DNA of 64,000 nt from Topomyia yanbarensis. Its lineage: Eukaryota; Arthropoda; Insecta; Diptera; Culicidae. The stretch lies in contig NC_080672.1 of the NCBI RefSeq assembly GCF_030247195.1, positions 402,583,037 through 402,647,036 on the forward strand, in the 5' to 3' direction. The notes under the pieces are model-generated. The model had not been told where the DNA came from. It worked only from the letters and a program-made list of their open reading frames with translations, and made no database searches. Below are positions 14,878 through 61,085 of this stretch, piece after piece. Numbering within the stretch: position 1 is the first letter of the stretch; every line of letters begins with the position of its first letter. The position numbers and the translations under genes were made by a program.

Positions 14878-15728
14878 CCCTAACGGTCCATTCGGCCTAA
14901 TTTTCCATTCGGCCTAACTTTCCATTCGGCCTGTCTATTCGGCCTAACTGTCCATTCGGCCCAACTGTCCATTCGGCCTAACGGTCCATTTGGCCAAACG
15001 GTCTATTCGGCCTAACTGTTTATTCGGCCTACCTTTCCATTCGGTCTAACTGTTCATTCGGCCTAACTGTGCATTCGGTCTAACTGTGCATTCGGTCTAA
15101 CTGTCCATTCGGTCTAACTGTCCATTCGGCCCAACTATCCATTCGGCCGAACTGTCCATTCGGCCTAATTGTACATTCGGCCTATCTGTCCATTTGGCCG
15201 AACTGTCCATTCGGCCTAACTGTCCATTTGGCCTAACTGTCCATTTGGCCTAACTGTCCATTTGGCCTAACTGTCCATTTGGCCTAACTGTCCATTTGGC
15301 CTAACTGTCCATTTGGCCTAACTGTCCATTTGGCCTAACTGTCCATTTGGCCTAACTGTCCATTTGGCCTAACTGTCCATTTGGCCTAACTGTCCATTTG
15401 GCCTAACTGTCCATTTGGCCTAACTATCCATTTGGCCTAACTGTCCATTTGGCCTAACTGTCCATTTGGCCTAACTGTCCATTTGGCCTAACTGTCCATT
15501 TGGCCTAACTGTCCCTTTGGCGTAACTGTCCCTTTGGCGTAACTGTCCCTTTGGCCTAACTGTCCCTTTGGCCTAACTGTCCCTTTGGCCTAACTGTCCA
15601 TTCCGCTTAATGTCCATTCGATAAATATTACATTTTATTGTCACCGCAACATATTCATTTCATGAACTTGTTGATATTTCTCGGTGAATGTCTTAGGTCC
15701 ATTCGGCCTAATGTATATTTGACCTAAT
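14878..15728. repeat. 17-bp minisatellite, unit TAACTGTCCATTTGGCC
   Basis: Roughly forty tandem units run from about 14880 to 15610, with an outlying unit at 15695-15728. Variants are spatially ordered: CATTCGG units dominate on the left, nearly identical CATTTGG units form a homogenised block at about 15205-15505, and CCTTTGG units lie at the right edge. A related motif (GGTCATTTGGCC) recurs at about 60980-61075. The array is non-coding. The spacing is far too short and the units too similar for a CRISPR array. Confidence 0.95.
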
Positions 15729-27170: not shown

Positions 27171-28310
27171 GTGAAAATGAGCTCAGACGAAAAATATTTC
27201 ATGTCCGAATGCGTACGCGATTTCTTTTTCAGAAACCATAAAGATTTTGGAATTCATCCGATCAATAGGAAAAGAGAAGACGTATCTCACCCTGCACCAA
27301 GATTTGCTAAATTATTTAAAAAAAATTCGCAACTATACCCGTGTGAGCATCGAAACGTTTGATTACATTTTAAGCCATATTGAAGTTGTTCTCACTAAAG
27401 AGTGGACCAACGTTATTAAAACTCCCATAGAACCACGAGAGAAACTTATAATCACGCTAAGGTAATGCTAGACCTCTCCTTTCCCTGTCGTAGTATGTCT
27501 TCACGAATTGCAAAGCAATCACCCCTTAAAAAATAATGTTGAATTTGTAGAATACCACACATTAATTCTACAATCCCTACGATATATCGTGGCATATTAG
27601 CAAAATTTATAAGCTGTTTTTAGATTGAATTATTAAATAGTTTTATTTAAGAACCAATACAGTGCAATATTTCTAGGCTTCTGGCAATGGGTTTGTCGTT
27701 CAATGCACCATCCTACACGTTTCGTATTGGAAGATCTACGGTCGCTAAAATCATTAAGGAGACCTGTCTTGCATTATGGATAAAGCTTCAGCCAATTCAT
27801 ATGCCACAGCTAACCCAACATTTATTTACACAACGTGCGCAAGATTACTGGACTTTGTGGAGCTTCCCCCATTGTTGTGGCAGCATTGATGGAAAGCACA
27901 TTCGAGTGAAATATCCGCCACACTCTAGGACAATGTTCTACAACTACAAAAAGTTTTTTTTGGTAGTACTTGATTGAATCGGGACAACTAGGCATTCCAT
28001 CAGAAAATAATCTCCCCGGAAACAAACATATCCATGATGAAGCTCACCCGTTGTTAAAACATGTTTTGCGACTATATGCTCAACGAGATATCACTATTTC
28101 AGAAGAATATTTTAATTCTAGTCTTTCAAGTGCAAGGAAATCGATCGAGTGTGCTGTCGGGGCAATAAATGCTAAATGGAGACTGCTATGGAAACCAATT
28201 GAAAGGAACGGCCTAAGATACTACCAAAGCTTTCTGTATTTGTCACAATGTTATCATTGATAGGGAAGGATGTATAGATGCTATTATGAAGAGTGAAGAT
28301 TTCTTATAAA
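27171..28310 (+). pseudogene. Harbinger DDE transposase (DDE_4 type), with intron and lesions
   Basis: Translation starts MKMSSDEKYF at 27171. A frameshift near 27275-27340 moves the frame to that of LHQDLLNYLKK…FDYILSHIEVVL. A canonical intron lies at 27462-27676 (GTAATG…TTCTAG): removing it joins ITLR to LLAMGLSFNA…FRIGRSTVAKI, the conserved HTH-like segment. The first catalytic Asp is visible in CGSIDGKHIRV, the second in IHDEAHPLLKH and the Glu in ARKSIECAVG, followed by INAKWRLL. After FYNYKKFFLVVL the sequence jumps to ESGQLGIPSENNLPG; relatives carry roughly thirty extra residues here, so an internal deletion is inferred. A further frameshift near 28220 is followed by FCICHNVIIDREG in another frame. 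The copy is inactive but only lightly decayed. Confidence 0.88.
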
Positions 28311-28383
28311 ACGTTCAAAAGCCCACACATAATCCTGTCTGTTGCAGCACAATTCGAAGCCGAAGCTTCTCTAGGGGATTTCT

Positions 28384-29130
28384 TTACATGGGGTAGCGGG
28401 CTATCAAAGAAAGTTTTATATCAAGCAGTTCTAGCTTCCTTTGCTCAAGCTCTAAAAGATATTCTGCTTGAGCGTTCTTTTCGTTATTCTTTTTATATCG
28501 TTTGGTGGGAAGCGAGACAGGAGCACTTGATGATCGCCCAATGAAGGTATCAGCTACCTCCATTGTTTCTAGTTGACTTGGTAGGATTTCAAAAAATCCT
28601 TCCAATGCCTTGACGTCCTCAAATACCTCGCTGTTGGAAAATTGAGGCTTGAGATTGCCAATTGCTTGCCTGGACTACATTTGTTGCCGTAAAAAGTAGA
28701 CTTTTGAAATACGGTCAGCTAGAGCAAACGCTTTGGTCACCAGCATCCTCGGATCTGAACACCGGCAGCTTGCATAGTTCGCGACCAAAAGTGTCACGCA
28801 ACTTTTTACACCTATTCTTTGCAACATCGTCTGAAATTTAAAAATATATAAAGTTTAGAGCAAGTATAACATTTGAGAAAATGTCGGTCACTCACAGTAC
28901 CCATTAATAACAATTTAAAAATTGTCCATCGATTTTACTTACCATTAATCCAAAACATATTTCCAACATTGGTTCACAAGAATCCGGTGCCGTTAATTGC
29001 GGGGTTGTTGGTCCCACAGTGCACACCTTTGGAAGACAGCTCCAATGTGTGCTTCGACATCGACATAAACATCCTCTGCCACCAAAGTAAAATCAAATTT
29101 TGAATTTGTCAGCATCTTTTCGCGCGAAAA
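28384..29130 (-). pseudogene. Harbinger accessory MADF/Myb-like DNA-binding protein, decayed
   Basis: Read on the minus strand from about 29122, MLTNSKFDFT leads to FQRCALWDQQPRN, matching the 'Leu-Trp-Asp' opening of MADF domains, and then a stop. Downstream, a donor-like GTAAGT near 28946 and an AG near 28833 join FWIN to DDVAKNRCKKLRDTFGREL, the conserved second half of MADF; this intron is inferred. A premature stop interrupts before PYFKSLLF, and another before the tail. The C-terminal part (ALEGFFEILPSQ-like, then AQAEYLLELEQRKLELL) matches the coiled tail of such proteins. In Harbinger elements this partner brings the transposase into the nucleus and binds the ends. It is convergent with the transposase, and their 3' ends lie about 75 bp apart. 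Confidence 0.75.
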
Positions 29131-39153: not shown

Positions 39154-40384
39154 TACTTCTAATCTTTGATTTAACAACATACATAGCTGGTTCAAAAAGA
39201 TTTTACTTTTTTTATAAATATTTGAAAAAATCAAAAATATTTTTCAAATATTTAATTTATATTTGCTACTTTCTACATTTATAAAATTTTACCGTTTACT
39301 CTAAGTAATTCTTCTATTATTGGATGATTAGTTGCTGCTTGAGCGAAGAGTCATACGAATGAGTATCCGAACACTTTTGTTGTAGTACACAAAGGGGCCA
39401 ACGGAAATTAAAAACCTGGCAAGGGTATGAAGGCCCTATAATCAATACAAAAAACACAATATATACAAAATCTATTTCCTTATTGCAAACAATAAATAAA
39501 ATAAAAAAAATATCTGATATTTTCTCCAGGTATTTATTTCATAAACGAATTTCACCTCAAATCGTGTACGAGCTGCAGAAAACATAAACTTGAAAATAAT
39601 ATTCAAGAACAAATAATAAATTACTCACCGATAAAGCACTCAACCGTATCTTCGTATTACTGAAATCCGTCCAAGATATCCACAGTTGTATTAGCGGACA
39701 CTTCTTTCACCACAACATGTTCGGCAATTTTTACGACGAACATTTAACTTTTAATTTTTAGCAAAATGGTGGTAATTGTTGATGACGCTAGCAATATACA
39801 ATATCTGCCAATATTTTTTTTGTTGAACCGACAATATATATTTCAAATAAAAAAAAAGTTTTTGTCGGATTAACAAACAAACATTTTTGATTTAACTTTA
39901 AGTGTTTTTATATATAAAAAATCGAATTGTTGAGTTGAAAAATGATATATTTGATTGAACTACACGAAATTACTCTGCGTGTACAAGAAAAAATTCAAAA
40001 ATGTCGTTATTCACCGTTAAATTGAAGCATACCATCCCGATCAGAAGAGGATAACAAAACAATAACATTGTTTTAACTATGGTGGATATTTATAACAACT
40101 GGAGTTATATTCAGATAACGGAATTGAAAGTGGATTGCGGGTAGTTTTCTATACTATCAATATTATAACATAATCTATTATGAGACCACCAATTTATGAA
40201 TTGATCGTTTGTTACAGGTCACTGTCATTAGATGATTATATCTAATTCTCACAGAATACCTATATACTTTTGGAAAAAATTATATCTCATTTAGTTTTAA
40301 CTTTGATAAAATCATATCAAATTTTGTTACAATTTTGTTACAATTAGCCAGGTTTTTGTTTTATTTTTTGTTATTTTAACAACT
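39154..40384. other. Unassigned, very AT-rich sequence
   Basis: Several long A and T runs and no recognised feature. At about 40030-40100 lies ATCCCGATCAGAAGAGGATA. Similar wording (GGGATACCACC, CAAAAGGGCATAAC when inverted) recurs at about 40460-40490, so part may belong to the repeat that follows. Confidence 0.3.
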
Positions 40385-41005
40385 AACCAGCCGGATCTAT
40401 AACTGGTTCTGTTTCAAAATATTTTTGAAATAAATAACTCCAGGTGTTATAAATCAGTTATGCCCTTTTGATTGGGATACCACCTTTATAGAAATCCAAT
40501 CTCACAAATTGCAATATCCTAAGTTCTACGGATAATGCTTTACAACTATTGGTGCTCAAATGAAAGGTAATAGTCTCAGTTATTAGTCGTACTTGTTTTT
40601 GTGAGCGAATTTTGCCTAAATCGAAAGTTAAGGACCATCCATAGATGACGTGGCATTTTTGAGTGATTTACAACACCACCCTCCCCCGTCGTACCATTTC
40701 GTCACAAACCTCTAAATACTCCCCCTGGTAATTACGTAGCTTGACGGTAACCCTCCTCCCTTGACCCATAAAAAATACAACAAAAAAAATAAAAAAAGAT
40801 GTTAGATGAAACGGGTAAGGTTGTCGTAACATCAGGTCAACCCCTATTCCCCTTTAAAAAAGACCCCCTACCCCCCCCCCCTGTCTTCGCACATCATCAC
40901 AAAATACAAAACTCCCCCATATAATGCTACGTCATTTATGGATGGTACCTTGTAGGTATTTAAAAACGTTGTTGTTTATAAACAACATGGGCATGAAGAA
41001 GTTAA
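40385..41005 (-). repeat. Dispersed repeat G (TTAA type), minus copy, interrupted
   Basis: Read on the minus strand from 41005: TTAACTTCTTCATGCCCATG, GTTGTTTATAAACAACAACG, (insertion), TTAGGCAAAATTCGCTCACA, GACTATTACCTTTCATTTGA. This parallels 48968-49200 (CCCATGTTGTTTGTGGACAA, AAGGCAAAATTTGCTCACAA, GACTATTGCCATTCATTTGA). The far end is not clear. A MITE is inserted at 40629-40952. Confidence 0.6.
40629..40952. mobile_element. MITE with ACCATCCATAAATGACGT-type ends
   Basis: The left end reads AAGGACCATCCATAGATGAC and the right end, inverted, CAAGGTACCATCCATAAATG; both continue as ACGT. The interior is C-rich (about 40679-40690, 40723-40735 and 40868-40882), in the style of a MITE type I associate with many insect genomes. 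It splits dispersed repeat G between AACTTTCGA and GTAGGTATTT (seen by comparison with 49020-49035). No clear target duplication; the superfamily is not assigned. Confidence 0.65.
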
Positions 41006-42540
41006 GATCAATATCAATTTCAGAAGCATAAGAATTTTGTCTACTCCCGATTTTATAAGTCAAATGAATTCGACCAAAATTCATGTTCATGTAGTGTCAC
41101 AATTCAAATCAATTCCTCTGATGATGGTAAACTACACTGCGAAAATTTACGATGACGCAAACAGCCATGGGCATGCTGGACTTGGAGAATGTGATTTGCG
41201 ACTGCAACATGCGGAACGCTATCGAGAATCCTGTTGGAGTGACGAAATTAACAGATATGCGTCAACGTAGGCTTATATGATAGCCTGATGGAGTTTATGA
41301 GATTTAAAAATGTGTAAATGATAATTAATCTAAATAATGAGAAATATTTATTAGACTATTTTTAGGGACTATAGAAGAATATTTAAATAGCTTCGGTTTA
41401 TGAAATAGAAAAAAATAAACTATGCTCCCTTTGGTCAGATGATGGAGCTGATAAAACAGGCCGTCACTGTAATAATATTTCAGTTGAATAACGTTTTCAA
41501 TCACACTTCAACTGATTGTGTCCATCCATGTTAATGGTTGGCAACACAAGAATCACACAATTTGCATCGAAACTTAAAGAAATATGCCAAGCTAGAATGA
41601 GTAGTAATTATTTACAGATAAGTTCTATTAAATTCAATCCATGATTAAATTTTCATTAAATTGTTCTATGATTTGCTAAATGAACGTCTATATCTAATGA
41701 AATTGATAAGCAATCGTTGAAAATCACTATTCACCGTCCGAGCAGCGTACACCAATAAATGAACTACCGAGCCGCCTGCGAGATGCGCATACAGCGCAAC
41801 GACCAAGAACCCATATCTGCTTCAATAAAATGTCCCAACAAAAGTTTGTCATGATCGCAAGGAACTAGGGACAAAAACAAAAAAGAATTTTGTTGCTCTT
41901 CTGTCTGGACAAGCGTACTGAAACACGCATGGTTGTCACGAATAAACTTTCTCTGCAATGTATCATTCTCTCACAACACATGCAACATTGCTTTATCTCA
42001 AATTCTCTTTGTGTGTACATTTCTTGCTTCTGAGGGTTGTGTGTTGCTGCGCGACAGAACAAACTGTATGTCGCATACTGTGTGTATCGTTTGTTTTGGT
42101 GAAATAATCGCAGCAAATTGACTCCCTGTACTAAACACAGTATTATGTCTATGCGACACTTTTTAAATGCATATTATATAGATTGGTTCAAATCTTTAAT
42201 TTGAAAAATTCAACGATTCAAACTGTAAAAAACTATAACCTGCACGGTGTGCAATATCTGGGTATCAATATTAATTCCATGCACCACCTATTCATCGTTA
42301 GTCCAAGGCATGATTCGAAACACCTTCACTCCGATAGATCCCTGTAACTTCGAAGATATATGCACATGTCAATGAGTCGTCTTTGTCGTCTTCGGTGATC
42401 AGTTGTAAGCTCGCCGGATTGTGAAGCCTTCTAGTTAAAAATCCCGAGCATCGGAATGCGTGAATAATGCAACAATTTCAGTCACCTCATCGCAGGCATT
42501 TTAGGTATTGGAAAATTCCACCGCAACTTCCTTGACATCA
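41006..42540. other. Unassigned sequence
   Basis: No gene or repeat recognised. The plus-strand ORF 41037-41270 and minus-strand ORF 41865-42116 show no domains. Confidence 0.3.
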
Positions 42541-42570
42541 GGTCGAAATGGAAATGTTCGACGACAATGA

Positions 42571-42783
42571 AAAGCTACCACCCATCGCCGATCAGATCCT
42601 GCAACGTTCTACCGGTTCACTCCAATGGAAAAATACAAATCCAGTTATGGTGTGATTGGTGGGATGAGTATAAGACACGGCACGGTGAAGAAAGGTGTGG
42701 TACTTAAGATTCAAACCACCATGGAGAGCGATTTATGTAATATTGATTGCCTAGATACGGAGGGGGATTTGTTGGCCAGCTGA
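42571..42783 (+). pseudogene. Unidentified protein-like segment of 70 codons
   Basis: The frame is open from 42571 to the TGA at 42781-42783, preceded in frame by a TGA. The text (DPATFYRFTPMEKYKSSYG, then GVIGGMSIRHG, then LKIQTTMESDLCNIDCLD) looks like real globular protein, with Gly turns and alternating hydrophobic residues. I cannot place it in a family. Immediately upstream another frame reads MEMFDDNEKLPPIADQIL, so a frameshifted gene relic or an exon is possible. A longer ORF at 42794-43276 in a different frame has no protein-like signal. Confidence 0.3.
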
Positions 42784-44930
42784 TCGACCAACTTTGATCC
42801 ACATTATACCATACGGGAGAGTTTGTATCCACACAACTGGATTGTGGACAGGGATGAACTTGGAATGCCTACTGGGATTGTTTGCAGTGAGATTCATATC
42901 ATCAATGCAGCTTCCTATAGAATTTGACACGTGGTTTAATTATGCAACCAAATCGAAACGAGTTATCCATACAAGCTTGCATACAATAAACTTTTCGTTT
43001 CGCGATTCGCAATGTCACCCTGACTTCAACCCCGCAAAGAACGCAGATTTATGCCGCTGCAGTTGCCGAAACGCGGTTTCGTTACCGCGGCTGTTAATGC
43101 ATATTAACGATATCGGTTTCAATTTGTCAATGCTCGCGGGGCTTTCGGTAGGTAGGTTGGTTGGTCTGAATACGCATTCATATCGGGTACCTACCAAACC
43201 ACCCCGTGAGCTATTTATTTATGTTATGCCATTTTCATACGCGTCGTTGTCGTTGTCGTCGTCGTCGCTGTCGTAGTCGCTTGGGCTCTGTTCGCCGCCA
43301 GTGGGATTTTGTGTTTAAATCTTTAACCCACATGTCCGCCCCGAAAACGGTAGGTCGTTAAGCAGACCGGTCCGCGGTCTGCTTTATACCGCCAGGCTGT
43401 CGGTAGGCAAATTTATGGGAATCTATGCGTGTGTACGATCTCGGAGACAACCTGCAGTAGCTAAGCCCAGGGAACAAAGGTTATTGAATTGAGTTTATAT
43501 AAACTTCGGGCTGGAATGTTTCGGTGGAATGGCTAATGTTGACAAATTCATTGGAGTTTCAGTATCTAATCGCTGTGCAGGTGGGAGTCAATTTGGTTTT
43601 TGTTCGTTGACATCTGAATCAGTTCAACGCACATGGGACCAATGCCGAATAGAGGGTGATGTGTTGTAATAGGAATCGTTTGCAAATGGGTACATACTGA
43701 TGATATTATCGTAGTTGATTCATTAACAATTCTAGAAATATCATCTAATTAACTCTTATAGACATGAACAAAAATCGATTTGTCATTTTGATTTTGAGTT
43801 TTCCTCTGCTTTGTTTTAAATTAAGAATAGCGAAATCATAAAAAGTTCGCGTTATTCACATTGCAAAAGATTCTCTATTAAACCGCACGCCTCCTCGTTA
43901 GGGACCCTTCGAACACATAACCATAACAGCCGTACATACATCAGATCAAAACAGCCGGCGGGCATCCAATGCACGGGTCAACAAAAGTGAATGAACGTCC
44001 GTGGCCGAATATCTGCGCTGTCATCTCCGACCACGTACTCAGGCACGCTGTTTTTTTTATCTATACCCGCAACAGAGTAGCGATGGTTTGTGGTGTCGCA
44101 ATCGCCCAAAACTGAAACCCCCGAATTGAAGAAACGGTACAATACACACACCGCGCGCTGCTGGTACGCGGTCTGTGTACCAATTCTCCATATATGCGGG
44201 TTCCAGTAGAGCTGCTTTATTTTATTTTTTTCTCTTTTGGTTGTTTTGGACCTCTTGCACACGCGCCAAGCAAAAGGTTGTTGAACAGATTGGCGAAAAA
44301 AGTGGTAAAATAGTTGGTCGAGGTTATGGGAAAAGTAGTTTCGCGTAGGGTCCCGAACGCGGTGAAGTAACAAACTGCGTGGGCTGCGTAGAGAAGAAGC
44401 TCGATGTAATAAGGTCTTCAGGTACATCGTACCAAATAATCGCTTAATGGTTATTACTGAACAATTTATTTTATTGAAAGGTGTTCATTAACTTAAATGG
44501 TACTAATGTCATCATTTTAGAACTACCTTCCTGTCTCCGAAAACTTCCAACAATTCCCATCTTCTTAACTAAATAACGAAGTATTAAAATTAAAACTATC
44601 AATACGACAAACAAGAAGACGGAGCGGGGCGCTTGAAGAATCCGAGATCCCATTTATAGATCGCAAACAGTAGTGTGATGTCGATTCAGCTTTTCGTTGC
44701 ATTTTATTTTTTAGTTTTAATAATAATTACTGCGGTTTACTTTCCTCACTTTTATTTTGATTGAATTGACGTTATTGCAAACAACATCAAGCAATATATC
44801 AGGTATCATATTGAATGAACTTAGCTTATCAAGTATCAACAAATGATGCTAATTTTATGTAAATCTCCACTTAATCTATTCATCACAATTACAACTCTTT
44901 ATATTGACATCTGACAGAAAGTTGTTTTAA
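42784..44930. other. Unique, GC-richer block; no gene proved
   Basis: No match to the repeat families here. (TCG)n-type triplets run at about 43243-43278. ORFs of 160 codons (42794-43276, plus) and 149 codons (43978-44427, minus) are the longest non-low-complexity frames in the window. Neither shows domains, signal peptides or splice support. The composition resembles the blocks at 10.7-13.9 and 53.7-56 kb. Confidence 0.35.
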
Positions 44931-59589: not shown

Positions 59590-59656
59590 ATAATGAGTGT
59601 CCGGTTATCTGGCCCAATTGCTGTTTGGTCAAATACTATCTGGCCGACTGCCACAT
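59590..59656. repeat. Left remnant of an 'ATTTGGCC' minisatellite
   Basis: Degenerate units (GTTATCTGGCCCAATTG, TGTTTGGTCAAATAC, TATCTGGCCGACTGCC) end in CACAT, the left copy of a 5-bp duplication. The array continues beyond the inserted element at 60971. Confidence 0.6.
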
Positions 59657-60970
59657 CACAGTGGCACGACTTAGAACATAAGGTGGACTAAAGTCCAAAC
59701 TTTTCCGTATCGGTTCATATAGGACGTTTTTATGTAATTTTGGTACGCTGAATTCGTTTTCGATATTAAAAATGAACATTTACTATTCATTAGGGTGTCT
59801 CAAATTTTTTTTTCTTAAAATTTGTGTATATTAATTTTCGTGTGCTAAATCGTTTTTGATATTAGATTAGTTTAATTCATTAGTGGGTTTCTTGGTATGA
59901 AAACTACATTTTTTTCCATTTTCAAAACAAACATTTTGAACGTCTTAGTGGAATATTGATTTATATTCACTAATCAACAAGATTTCTAACGATTTTGTTT
60001 TCGCAGGCGTGTTTTAAGTTGCTTAGATTGCTTATTTCATACCTTAAATTGAAATAAATCCAAAATCCTTTTTTCGCGTATATGGTTCATTTAAAAATGG
60101 TCTTATTTTATTAGGATAATATCTTATACCCTTAAGCTATATCAGCGCTATGCAAACTCGGAAAAAATAGTCTCACCAAATGACTAGAACTCAACTGTGT
60201 TCACTCAATTTGACAGTTATTACGTAAGTTAGCAAAAATAGTTCATGAAACATTTTATGACACATTTCAGATGGTTGAAAATATTTACTGAAATTTTAAA
60301 CATTTTTAATTTCTTTACCACTTAAAAACCATACTTCTTGATCACTAGTAGATCATGCTCTAAATGCTATTTGAAAGTTTTGCATAAATTAGTGTCATTA
60401 TTCTAGTCATAAAGTGAATATTCAAATTAAATATCATTAATAACCATGCGTCTCCATTCACAGTTTTTTCAAATTTTGACTGCTTATCGCAAGATTTCGC
60501 AAAACTAGCATAGGCTCATTTTAAAGAGAAAATGAAAAGCTTTCGAATGAGCATAGTGTGATCGCGGGCATTCACGGGCGTCGTTGTTGTTATCGCTTTA
60601 GAAGTTCGAATTCAATAAAAATTCATGACAAACAGTTACCTAAACACTAACTAAACCAACTAGTGACTTATTTTTGGCGATTTTGCGATGTAATTTTATC
60701 ACACGGATAATTTTGGTGAAGTAATGCAATTCATATAATCAACCGTTTCTTTGAAAAACGAGAATAACCGTATGTAGTTCCTATGGTCAAATAATGCAAA
60801 AAACACTTGAGTTATGCCCTTCAAAAAGCTGTCAAAAATTCATTTTGCATTCAAATCACCTAAAATCTCGCGAAAATGTCTCTGATGGCTCAGCTGATAC
60901 GAGATAAATACTAGTGAGAATATCGCATAACCTTCATATATGGACTTAAGTCCGGGCTCGTCCCACTGTG
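59657..60970. mobile_element. Transib-like non-autonomous element with RSS-like 12/23 ends
   Basis: This 1314-bp element is flanked by the direct repeat CACAT (59652-59656 and 60971-60975). Both termini begin with the heptamer CACAGTG, identical to the V(D)J signal heptamer, and continue GGCACGA / GGGACGA. Left end: heptamer 59657-59663, then 23 bp, then ACTAAAGTC at 59687-59695. Right end, read inward: heptamer 60970-60964, then 12 bp, then ACTTAAGTC at 60951-60943, lying inside the palindrome GGACTTAAGTCC. A 5-bp duplication and CACWGTG-like ends are known for Transib, whose transposase is related to RAG1. The interior is AT-rich with no RAG1-like coding, so it would need a transposase from elsewhere. 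The alternative is another TIR superfamily with a coincidental heptamer. Confidence 0.6.
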
Positions 60971-61085
60971 CACATAGCCGAATGGGTCATCTGACTGAAT
61001 GGGTCATTTGGCCAAATAGGTCATTTGAACGAATGGGCCATTTGAACGAATAGGTCATTTGGCCGGCATGCTGGGCCAAATGGCT
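60971..61085. repeat. Right part of the 'ATTTGGCC' minisatellite
   Basis: After CACAT, five or six units of about 17-18 bp follow (GAATGGGTCATCTGACT, GAATGGGTCATTTGGCC, AAATAGGTCATTTGAAC, GAATGGGCCATTTGAAC and so on). Similar wording to the 14.9-15.7 kb array suggests a common origin. Confidence 0.75.

What the first reader, a model, noticed from the sequence alone, without database searches (positions are those of the whole stretch)
59652..60975. Element with V(D)J-like 12/23 recombination-signal ends
Seen directly: an exact 5-bp direct repeat (CACAT); CACAGTG at both termini; and a nonamer-like 9-mer, ACTAAAGTC exactly 23 bp inside the left heptamer and ACTTAAGTC exactly 12 bp inside the right one. 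The two 9-mers differ by one base. Established knowledge: RAG1/2 recombination signals are heptamer CACAGTG, a 12- or 23-bp spacer and a nonamer; Transib elements are the RAG1-related transposon superfamily with 5-bp duplications and CAC-starting ends. Inference: this is a mosquito Transib derivative whose ends keep, or have converged on, the 12/23 asymmetry. Only a one-turn difference in spacer length separates the two ends, which is what an enzyme with a paired 12/23 requirement would select.
Basis: partly seen in the sequence, partly recalled or inferred. Interest (0 to 1): 0.88.

Follow-up and report, generated by a model that had tools for sequence, protein, structure and literature searches.

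The report
Jumping element with 12/23 antibody-type ends
A gene-less jumping DNA element, present in dozens of closely similar copies in its host genome, ends in two signals spaced 23 and 12 bases like those that guide antibody-gene cutting, and is likely moved by an enzyme related to RAG1; similar ends were reported before in Transib elements of a malaria mosquito and a fruit fly.

Summary
The element is 59,657-60,970 (1,314 bp), flanked by CACAT; left end CACAGTG-23 bp-ACTAAAGTC, right end CACAGTG-12 bp-ACTTAAGTC. In the host genome (1.17 Gb) it is one copy of a non-coding family (majority consensus 1,674 bp). Of 51 unique left ends read, the 46 reached by similarity all have 23; five fetched by a scan for other spacings have 17-22. 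All 62 unique right ends read have 12. Of 32 copies with both ends, 22 have exact 5-bp duplications. Some copies at different sites are 99.9-100% identical, so the family likely moved recently. Targets lean to C-R-N-Y-G.

CAC ends, a 13-bp inverted repeat and 5-bp duplications fit Transib, but no transposase was found; the one answered search could not show absence. 12/23-asymmetric ends were already reported for Anopheles gambiae Transib2, N1-N3 and Drosophila Transib5 (PMC8355894). It is therefore a likely new member of a known kind. The 9-mer lies in a palindrome-like block, unlike the A-rich RAG nonamer. Whether a 12/23 pairing rule operates is untested, and two papers argue against one in invertebrates.

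The parts
59657..60970 (+). the element, 1,314 bp, non-coding; lacks about 305 bp that most other copies read carry near element position 208-214
59652..59656 (+). target site duplication CACAT, left copy
60971..60975 (+). target site duplication CACAT, right copy
59657..59669 (+). left 13-bp terminal inverted repeat CACAGTGGCACGA; first 7 bp heptamer-like
59664..59686 (+). 23-bp left spacer
59687..59695 (+). left 9-mer ACTAAAGTC, inside GGACTAAAGTCC (59685-59696)
60958..60970 (-). right 13-bp terminal inverted repeat CACAGTGGGACGA
60952..60963 (-). 12-bp right spacer
60943..60951 (-). right 9-mer ACTTAAGTC, inside the perfect palindrome GGACTTAAGTCC (60942-60953)
60979..61061 (+). 17-bp tandem array beside the element, right side; array-like sequence also at about 59603-59650 on the left

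Best explanation
Window 59,657-60,970 is one copy of a multi-copy, non-coding DNA transposon family whose left ends typically read CACAGTG-23-ACTAAAGTC and right ends CACAGTG-12-ACTTAAGTC between 5-bp target duplications, and it is likely a Transib-type element predicted to be cut and pasted by a RAG1-like transposase encoded elsewhere. Shown: copies, end structure, spacings, duplications, target preference. Inferred: recent movement (from near-identical copies at different sites); that the transposase would bind the CAC heptamer for cleavage and the GGACTWAAGTCC site for anchoring; that the 11-bp (about one helical turn) offset would make the two ends distinguishable, so that one of each is paired, as in V(D)J recombination; and that target choice C-R-N-Y-G would reflect an insertion step with a 5-bp stagger.
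For: Tally of unique ends: 46 of 46 left ends reached by similarity at 23, and 62 of 62 right ends at 12 (61 reached by similarity, 1 by pattern). Of these, 7 left ends (copies chosen by the right end) and at least 34 right ends (copies chosen by the left end) were not selected for their own similarity. Exact 5-bp duplications in 22 of 32 copies, none exact at 6 bp or more. In those 32 copies the mean majority-base frequency is 99.4% over the last 50 columns against 91.2% inside; the right end was not the search query there, though it had to be recognisable to enter the set. 100% identical copies at different sites, L012/L025 and L023/L024. Target G+C 64% against 43% in the flanks, C at first base in 26 of 37 and G at last in 25 of 37. 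The flanks read as an interrupted 17-bp tandem array. Literature, passages only: a RAG-type Transib with 13-bp inverted repeats and 5-bp duplications 'typical of Transibs' (PMC4411706); 5-bp duplications of Transib and 12/23 asymmetry of A. gambiae Transib2/N1-N3 and D. melanogaster Transib5 (PMC8355894). That Transib duplications are G+C-rich in general is recalled.
Against: No transposase with these ends was found. The 9-mer matches the RSS nonamer ACAAAAACC at only 6 of 9 and 5 of 9 and lies in a palindrome-like block. An exact pattern scan for spacers 13-22 found 8 ends in the genome: seven left-type (17, 17, 19, 20, 21, 22, 22) and one right-type (17); 5 were read, and one, L078 at 22, has an intact CAGGC duplication, so 23 is not absolutely required or these decayed later. 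10 of 32 copies lack an exact 5-bp duplication. One head-to-head pair (L026) has right ends on both outsides between CAGTG repeats, which could mean that a 12/12 pairing worked once. Against the pairing step in particular: PMC7204232 (passage) expects invertebrate RAG-like enzymes to rely on the outer 15-17 bp and to be rather insensitive to asymmetry, and PMC8355894 (section 6) says that 12/23 asymmetry is recognised only when RAG1 is complexed with RAG2.
Confidence: 0.72

Rival explanations
1. The family is a real transposon, likely Transib, but the 12/23 numbers carry no pairing rule: both ends share one roughly 30-bp inverted repeat, and an 11-bp length difference was fixed in the ancestor of the family. 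(Compatible with the best explanation except for its pairing step.)
For: With an 11-bp gap the ends align at 24 of 30; random continuations reach that in 105 of 4,000 trials, so the gapped alignment itself is only moderately unusual. All copies descend from one ancestor, so identical spacings count as one event, not many. Most Transib families have symmetric ends (PMC8289069, passage).
Against: Both sites stayed intact in most copies read while the interior fell to about 91%, so both spacings are compatible with movement; other 12/23 families are reported in A. gambiae and Drosophila.
Confidence: 0.45
2. The family belongs to another superfamily and resembles Transib only at the ends: the hAT5 group with 5-bp duplications (recalled), or another lineage of the CACTA-Mirage-Chapaev-Transib clade.
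For: CACAG has A at position 2 and G at 5 as hAT ends do (recalled). The clade as a whole shares CA..TG ends in most cases and makes 2-5 bp duplications (PMC12730594, passage). No RAG1-like gene was found in the one answered search.
Against: Third base C does not fit the usual hAT start (recalled). CAC ends with a 13-bp inverted repeat and 5-bp duplications match published Transib features. The PF12940 control failed everywhere, so its silence means nothing.
Confidence: 0.15
3. The GGACTWAAGTCC block is a binding site of a symmetric dimer (transposase or host protein) and not a nonamer equivalent; its distance from the end is tuned by helical phase only.
For: The right block is a perfect 12-bp palindrome, the left has 5-bp perfect arms; the offset is 11 bp, about one turn.
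Against: In each end the best match to ACAAAAACC among spacers 8 to 31 falls exactly at 23 (left) and 12 (right).
Confidence: 0.35

Closest known systems
Transib2 and TransibN1-N3 of Anopheles gambiae, Transib5 of Drosophila melanogaster
   Same: 12/23-asymmetric ends with heptamer- and nonamer-like sequences (PMC8355894, figure legend); N1-N3 non-autonomous by their names (recalled)
   Different: Their end sequences were not in hand (figure not held; original paper Kapitonov and Jurka 2005 not held), so sequence identity with this family could not be checked.
Hztransib of Helicoverpa zea
   Same: 5-bp duplication, GCTCG in the copy described; Transib-like (PMC1852546, passages)
   Different: 3,518 bp and coding; its ends are described as symmetric with little or no nonamer similarity (PMC8289069, passage).
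Vertebrate V(D)J recombination signals
   Same: CACAGTG heptamer, 12 and 23 bp spacers (consensus in PMC8289069)
   Different: A-rich ACAAAAACC nonamer; here a palindrome-like GGACTWAAGTCC.
ProtoRAG of amphioxus
   Same: CAC heptamer-like start and bipartite asymmetric ends
   Different: 27/31 spacers and a GCCATCTTG second element (PMC8289069, passages).

Membership tests
Transib superfamily | CAC-starting terminal inverted repeats | tested here: met
   CACAGTGG[C/G]ACGA at both ends of the window copy; 13 bp, 12 identical; CACAGTG in 44 of 46 similarity-reached unique left ends and 60 of 62 right ends (exceptions one L026 end and L074 left; L034, L061 right)
Transib superfamily | 5-bp target site duplication | tested here: met
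   22 of 32 copies exact, none longer; of 10 misses, L011, L020, L026b, L034 match 4 of 5, L032 and L038 3 of 5, L023 2 of 5, L014 1 of 5, and L039a/L039b (2 of 5) carry crossed repeats that fit an inversion between the two copies
Transib superfamily | RAG1-core-like DDE transposase in an autonomous relative | tested here: inconclusive
   PF12940: 0 matches in G000, but 0 of 14 controls rang; the protein search with P0033 did not complete
12/23-asymmetric Transib ends | heptamer-23-nonamer at one end, heptamer-12-nonamer at the other, throughout the family | tested here: met
   46 of 46 similarity-reached left ends at 23 and 62 of 62 right ends at 12; exceptions: 8 in-between spacings in an exact genome-wide pattern scan, 5 of them read
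V(D)J recombination signal | A-rich nonamer ACAAAAACC | tested here: not met
   6 of 9 and 5 of 9 matches; palindrome-like block instead
V(D)J recombination signal | obligatory 12 with 23 pairing | not testable with these tools
   needs excision assays; L026 is a possible natural counter-example
hAT | 8-bp duplication (5 bp in hAT5, recalled) and CAGNG-type start (recalled) | tested here: not met
   no copy of 32 has an exact duplication over 5 bp; start is CACAG; hAT5 stays open without a transposase

The most novel reading that the evidence does not exclude
A recently active Transib-type family in this genome enforces a 12/23 pairing rule without RAG2: its transposase tells the two ends apart by a palindromic anchor site set one helical turn further in on the left, so the 12/23 logic of adaptive immunity exists as a working transposon trait.
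Probability: 0.22. Interest if true: 0.85.

Novelty: new member of a known kind. Interest (0 to 1): 0.55.

Why it matters
Where the 12/23 rule came from is debated; PMC8355894 (section 6) argues that it came from Transib ends with 12/23 asymmetry and says that few elements have them. A family with dozens of closely similar copies and 23/12 ends offers natural substrates in which like and unlike end pairs could be compared directly, with or without RAG2.

Tried and rejected
No Pfam match in six frames of the window copy or of copy L012; in the flanks only two matches to domains of unknown function, E 0.055 and 0.042, below their cut-offs. No Rfam match in the window at gathering scores. Pattern scans of viral contigs and genome contigs gave nothing. 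A CAC..GTG pair with a 5-bp repeat at 40220-43577 (10 of 13) was taken as near chance: no Pfam match, and the window has 3 such pairs at 10 or more of 13, the real one included. Copies L005/L061, L030 and L031/L060, which are longer than the rest or lack a right end, were considered as autonomous copies; they were not scanned against Pfam. Kapitonov and Jurka 2005 was not held, so published end sequences could not be compared. Papers seen as passages and not relied on: PMC3212995, PMC9033116, PMC7728395, PMC6941560.

Full report
What is there. The finding's letters are all present at the stated places. The element spans 59657-60970, is 1,314 bp, overlaps no open frame of 100 aa or more (stop-to-stop frames of 30 aa or more listed) and has no Pfam match in six frames. 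It sits inside a 17-bp tandem array: the array is clear on the right (60979-61061), and the left flank also aligns to the unit better than any of 300 single-base shuffles (score 24 against a shuffle maximum of 22), so the joined flanks read as an interrupted array. No second copy was found in the rest of the window.

Chance. Among 20,000 random end pairs from the window, 9.5% share some 8-of-9 word, 0.33% share one at 12/23 plus or minus 1, 0.03% at exactly 12/23, and 0.12% share a 13-mer at 12 of 13 or better. The 9-mer is one of several frames of a 13-bp shared block, so one copy alone would not have been persuasive.

The family. The genome search answered: G000 has 1,168,131,283 bases in 1,044 contigs, and the window is C3:402583037-402647036. 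The left 70 bases gave 41 listed matches (40 of 1,003 candidates scored) and the right 70 bases 40 (40 of 1,104 scored); the tool says such counts are lower bounds. All 41 left matches lie in loci that I hold (L001-L039). Right ends were found for 39 of the 41; L031/L060 and L033/L067 showed none in the stretches read. In 32 copies with both ends in one locus, L001 and L002 share flanks, as do L014 and L015, so these are two duplicated loci counted twice. Mean identity of a copy to the others was 94.1-96.5%, with groups at 99.9-100% (L012/L025/L026b; L023/L024; L016/L039a/L039b; L035/L036). 25 of the 32 are 1,620-1,710 bp long; the window copy lacks about 305 bp present in most others near element position 208-214.

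Spacers. My first table printed spacers one less than the finding's frame (22 and 11) because it started the 9-mer one base early; in the finding's frame they are 23 and 12. The final tally of unique ends (BLAST matches with E above 1e-4, matches starting after base 10, and ends cut by a locus edge were dropped before the count) is: 51 left ends, of which 46 reached by similarity are all at 23 (38 in left-end-selected loci, 7 in right-end-selected loci, 1 in both) and 5 fetched by the pattern scan are at 17, 19, 20, 21 and 22; 62 right ends, all at 12 (29 in left-end-selected loci, 5 in follow-up stretches of such copies, 23 in right-end-selected loci, 4 shared, 1 in a pattern-selected locus). 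The position of the block was scored with mismatches allowed; the block itself is changed in L073 and L076 (left) and L022 and L063 (right). The heptamer is altered in one L026 end and L074 (left) and in L034 and L061 (right). The scan for spacers 13-22 (exact ends only) found 8 matches in the whole genome: seven left-type and one right-type, the latter at 17. Spacers above 23 were not scanned. Of nine right-end-selected copies fetched whole (L069-L077), seven showed a left end, all at 23, and two (L069, L077) showed none in the stretch fetched.

Duplications and targets. 22 of 32 copies have an exact 5-bp duplication and none a longer one. Of the ten others, L011, L020, L026b and L034 match 4 of 5; L032 and L038 3 of 5; L023 2 of 5; L014 matches 1 of 5 but is offset by one base relative to its twin L015, which is exact; L039a and L039b match 2 of 5, but their four flanks pair crosswise, as expected if recombination between the two inverted copies flipped the 750 bp between them (my reading). 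Thirty-seven left flanks (L002, L015 and the two L026 ends dropped) show C 26, then A or G 31, then any base, then T or C 31, then G 25: a C-R-N-Y-G preference. Target G+C is 64% against 43% for bases -60 to -11.

L026. Two copies lie head to head, with left ends meeting as GCCACTG-CA-CAGTGGC and right ends outermost, between CAGTG and CAGTG. Because CAGTG is both the outer repeat and bases 3-7 of the heptamer, and fits C-R-N-Y-G, one copy may have inserted into the other's heptamer with small later changes; alternatively a fused pair moved by its two right ends. Not resolved.

What it most likely is. CAC-starting ends with a 13-bp inverted repeat and 5-bp duplications fit Transib as described in PMC4411706 (passages), PMC8355894 (passages and section 6) and PMC1852546 (passages). 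PMC8355894's figure legend already lists 12/23-asymmetric ends for D. melanogaster Transib5 and A. gambiae Transib2, N1, N2 and N3, taken from its reference 8 (Kapitonov and Jurka 2005, by recall and by the reference lists seen), which is not held. PMC8289069 (passages) says most Transib families are symmetric. So the arrangement is uncommon but known. Two papers speak against a pairing rule outside vertebrates: PMC7204232 (passage) and PMC8355894 section 6. Whether this very family is already catalogued (for example in Repbase) was not checked beyond the paper searches.

What is missing. The coding partner. PF12940 gave no match in G000, and the same model rang in none of 14 controls. Protein searches from RAG1 reached RAG1 and RAG1-like proteins, none named Transib. 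The genome search with RAG1-like protein P0033 did not complete. Hence Transib membership rests on the ends, and the pairing rule is inference. The host's identity is not given by any search.

Noticed in passing
window 27181-28544 (+) and 28384-28674 (-): Broken transposase remnant, PIF/Harbinger-like by recall: weak DDE_Tnp_4 match (E 0.0068, below the curated cut-off), with an opposite-strand frame nearby.
   Followed up: partly
window 14879-15618: 17-bp tandem array CCTAACTGTCCATTTGG, 43.8 copies, the same period as the array that the element interrupts.
   Followed up: no
L026 1439-4699: Two near-identical copies (99.8%) head to head with left ends fused and right ends outside, flanked by CAGTG on both sides: self-insertion into a heptamer or a 12/12 transposition.
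   Followed up: partly
L039 1336-5418: Two identical inverted copies 750 bp apart with crosswise-matching 5-bp flanks, as left by an inversion through recombination between them.
   Followed up: partly
L002: Duplicated locus on C3 about 193 kb from the window copy, with the same flanks and an internal deletion of the element (763 bp against 1,314).
   Followed up: partly
window 59735-59928: Diverged direct repeats 90-97 bp apart inside the element (D3, D5).
   Followed up: no
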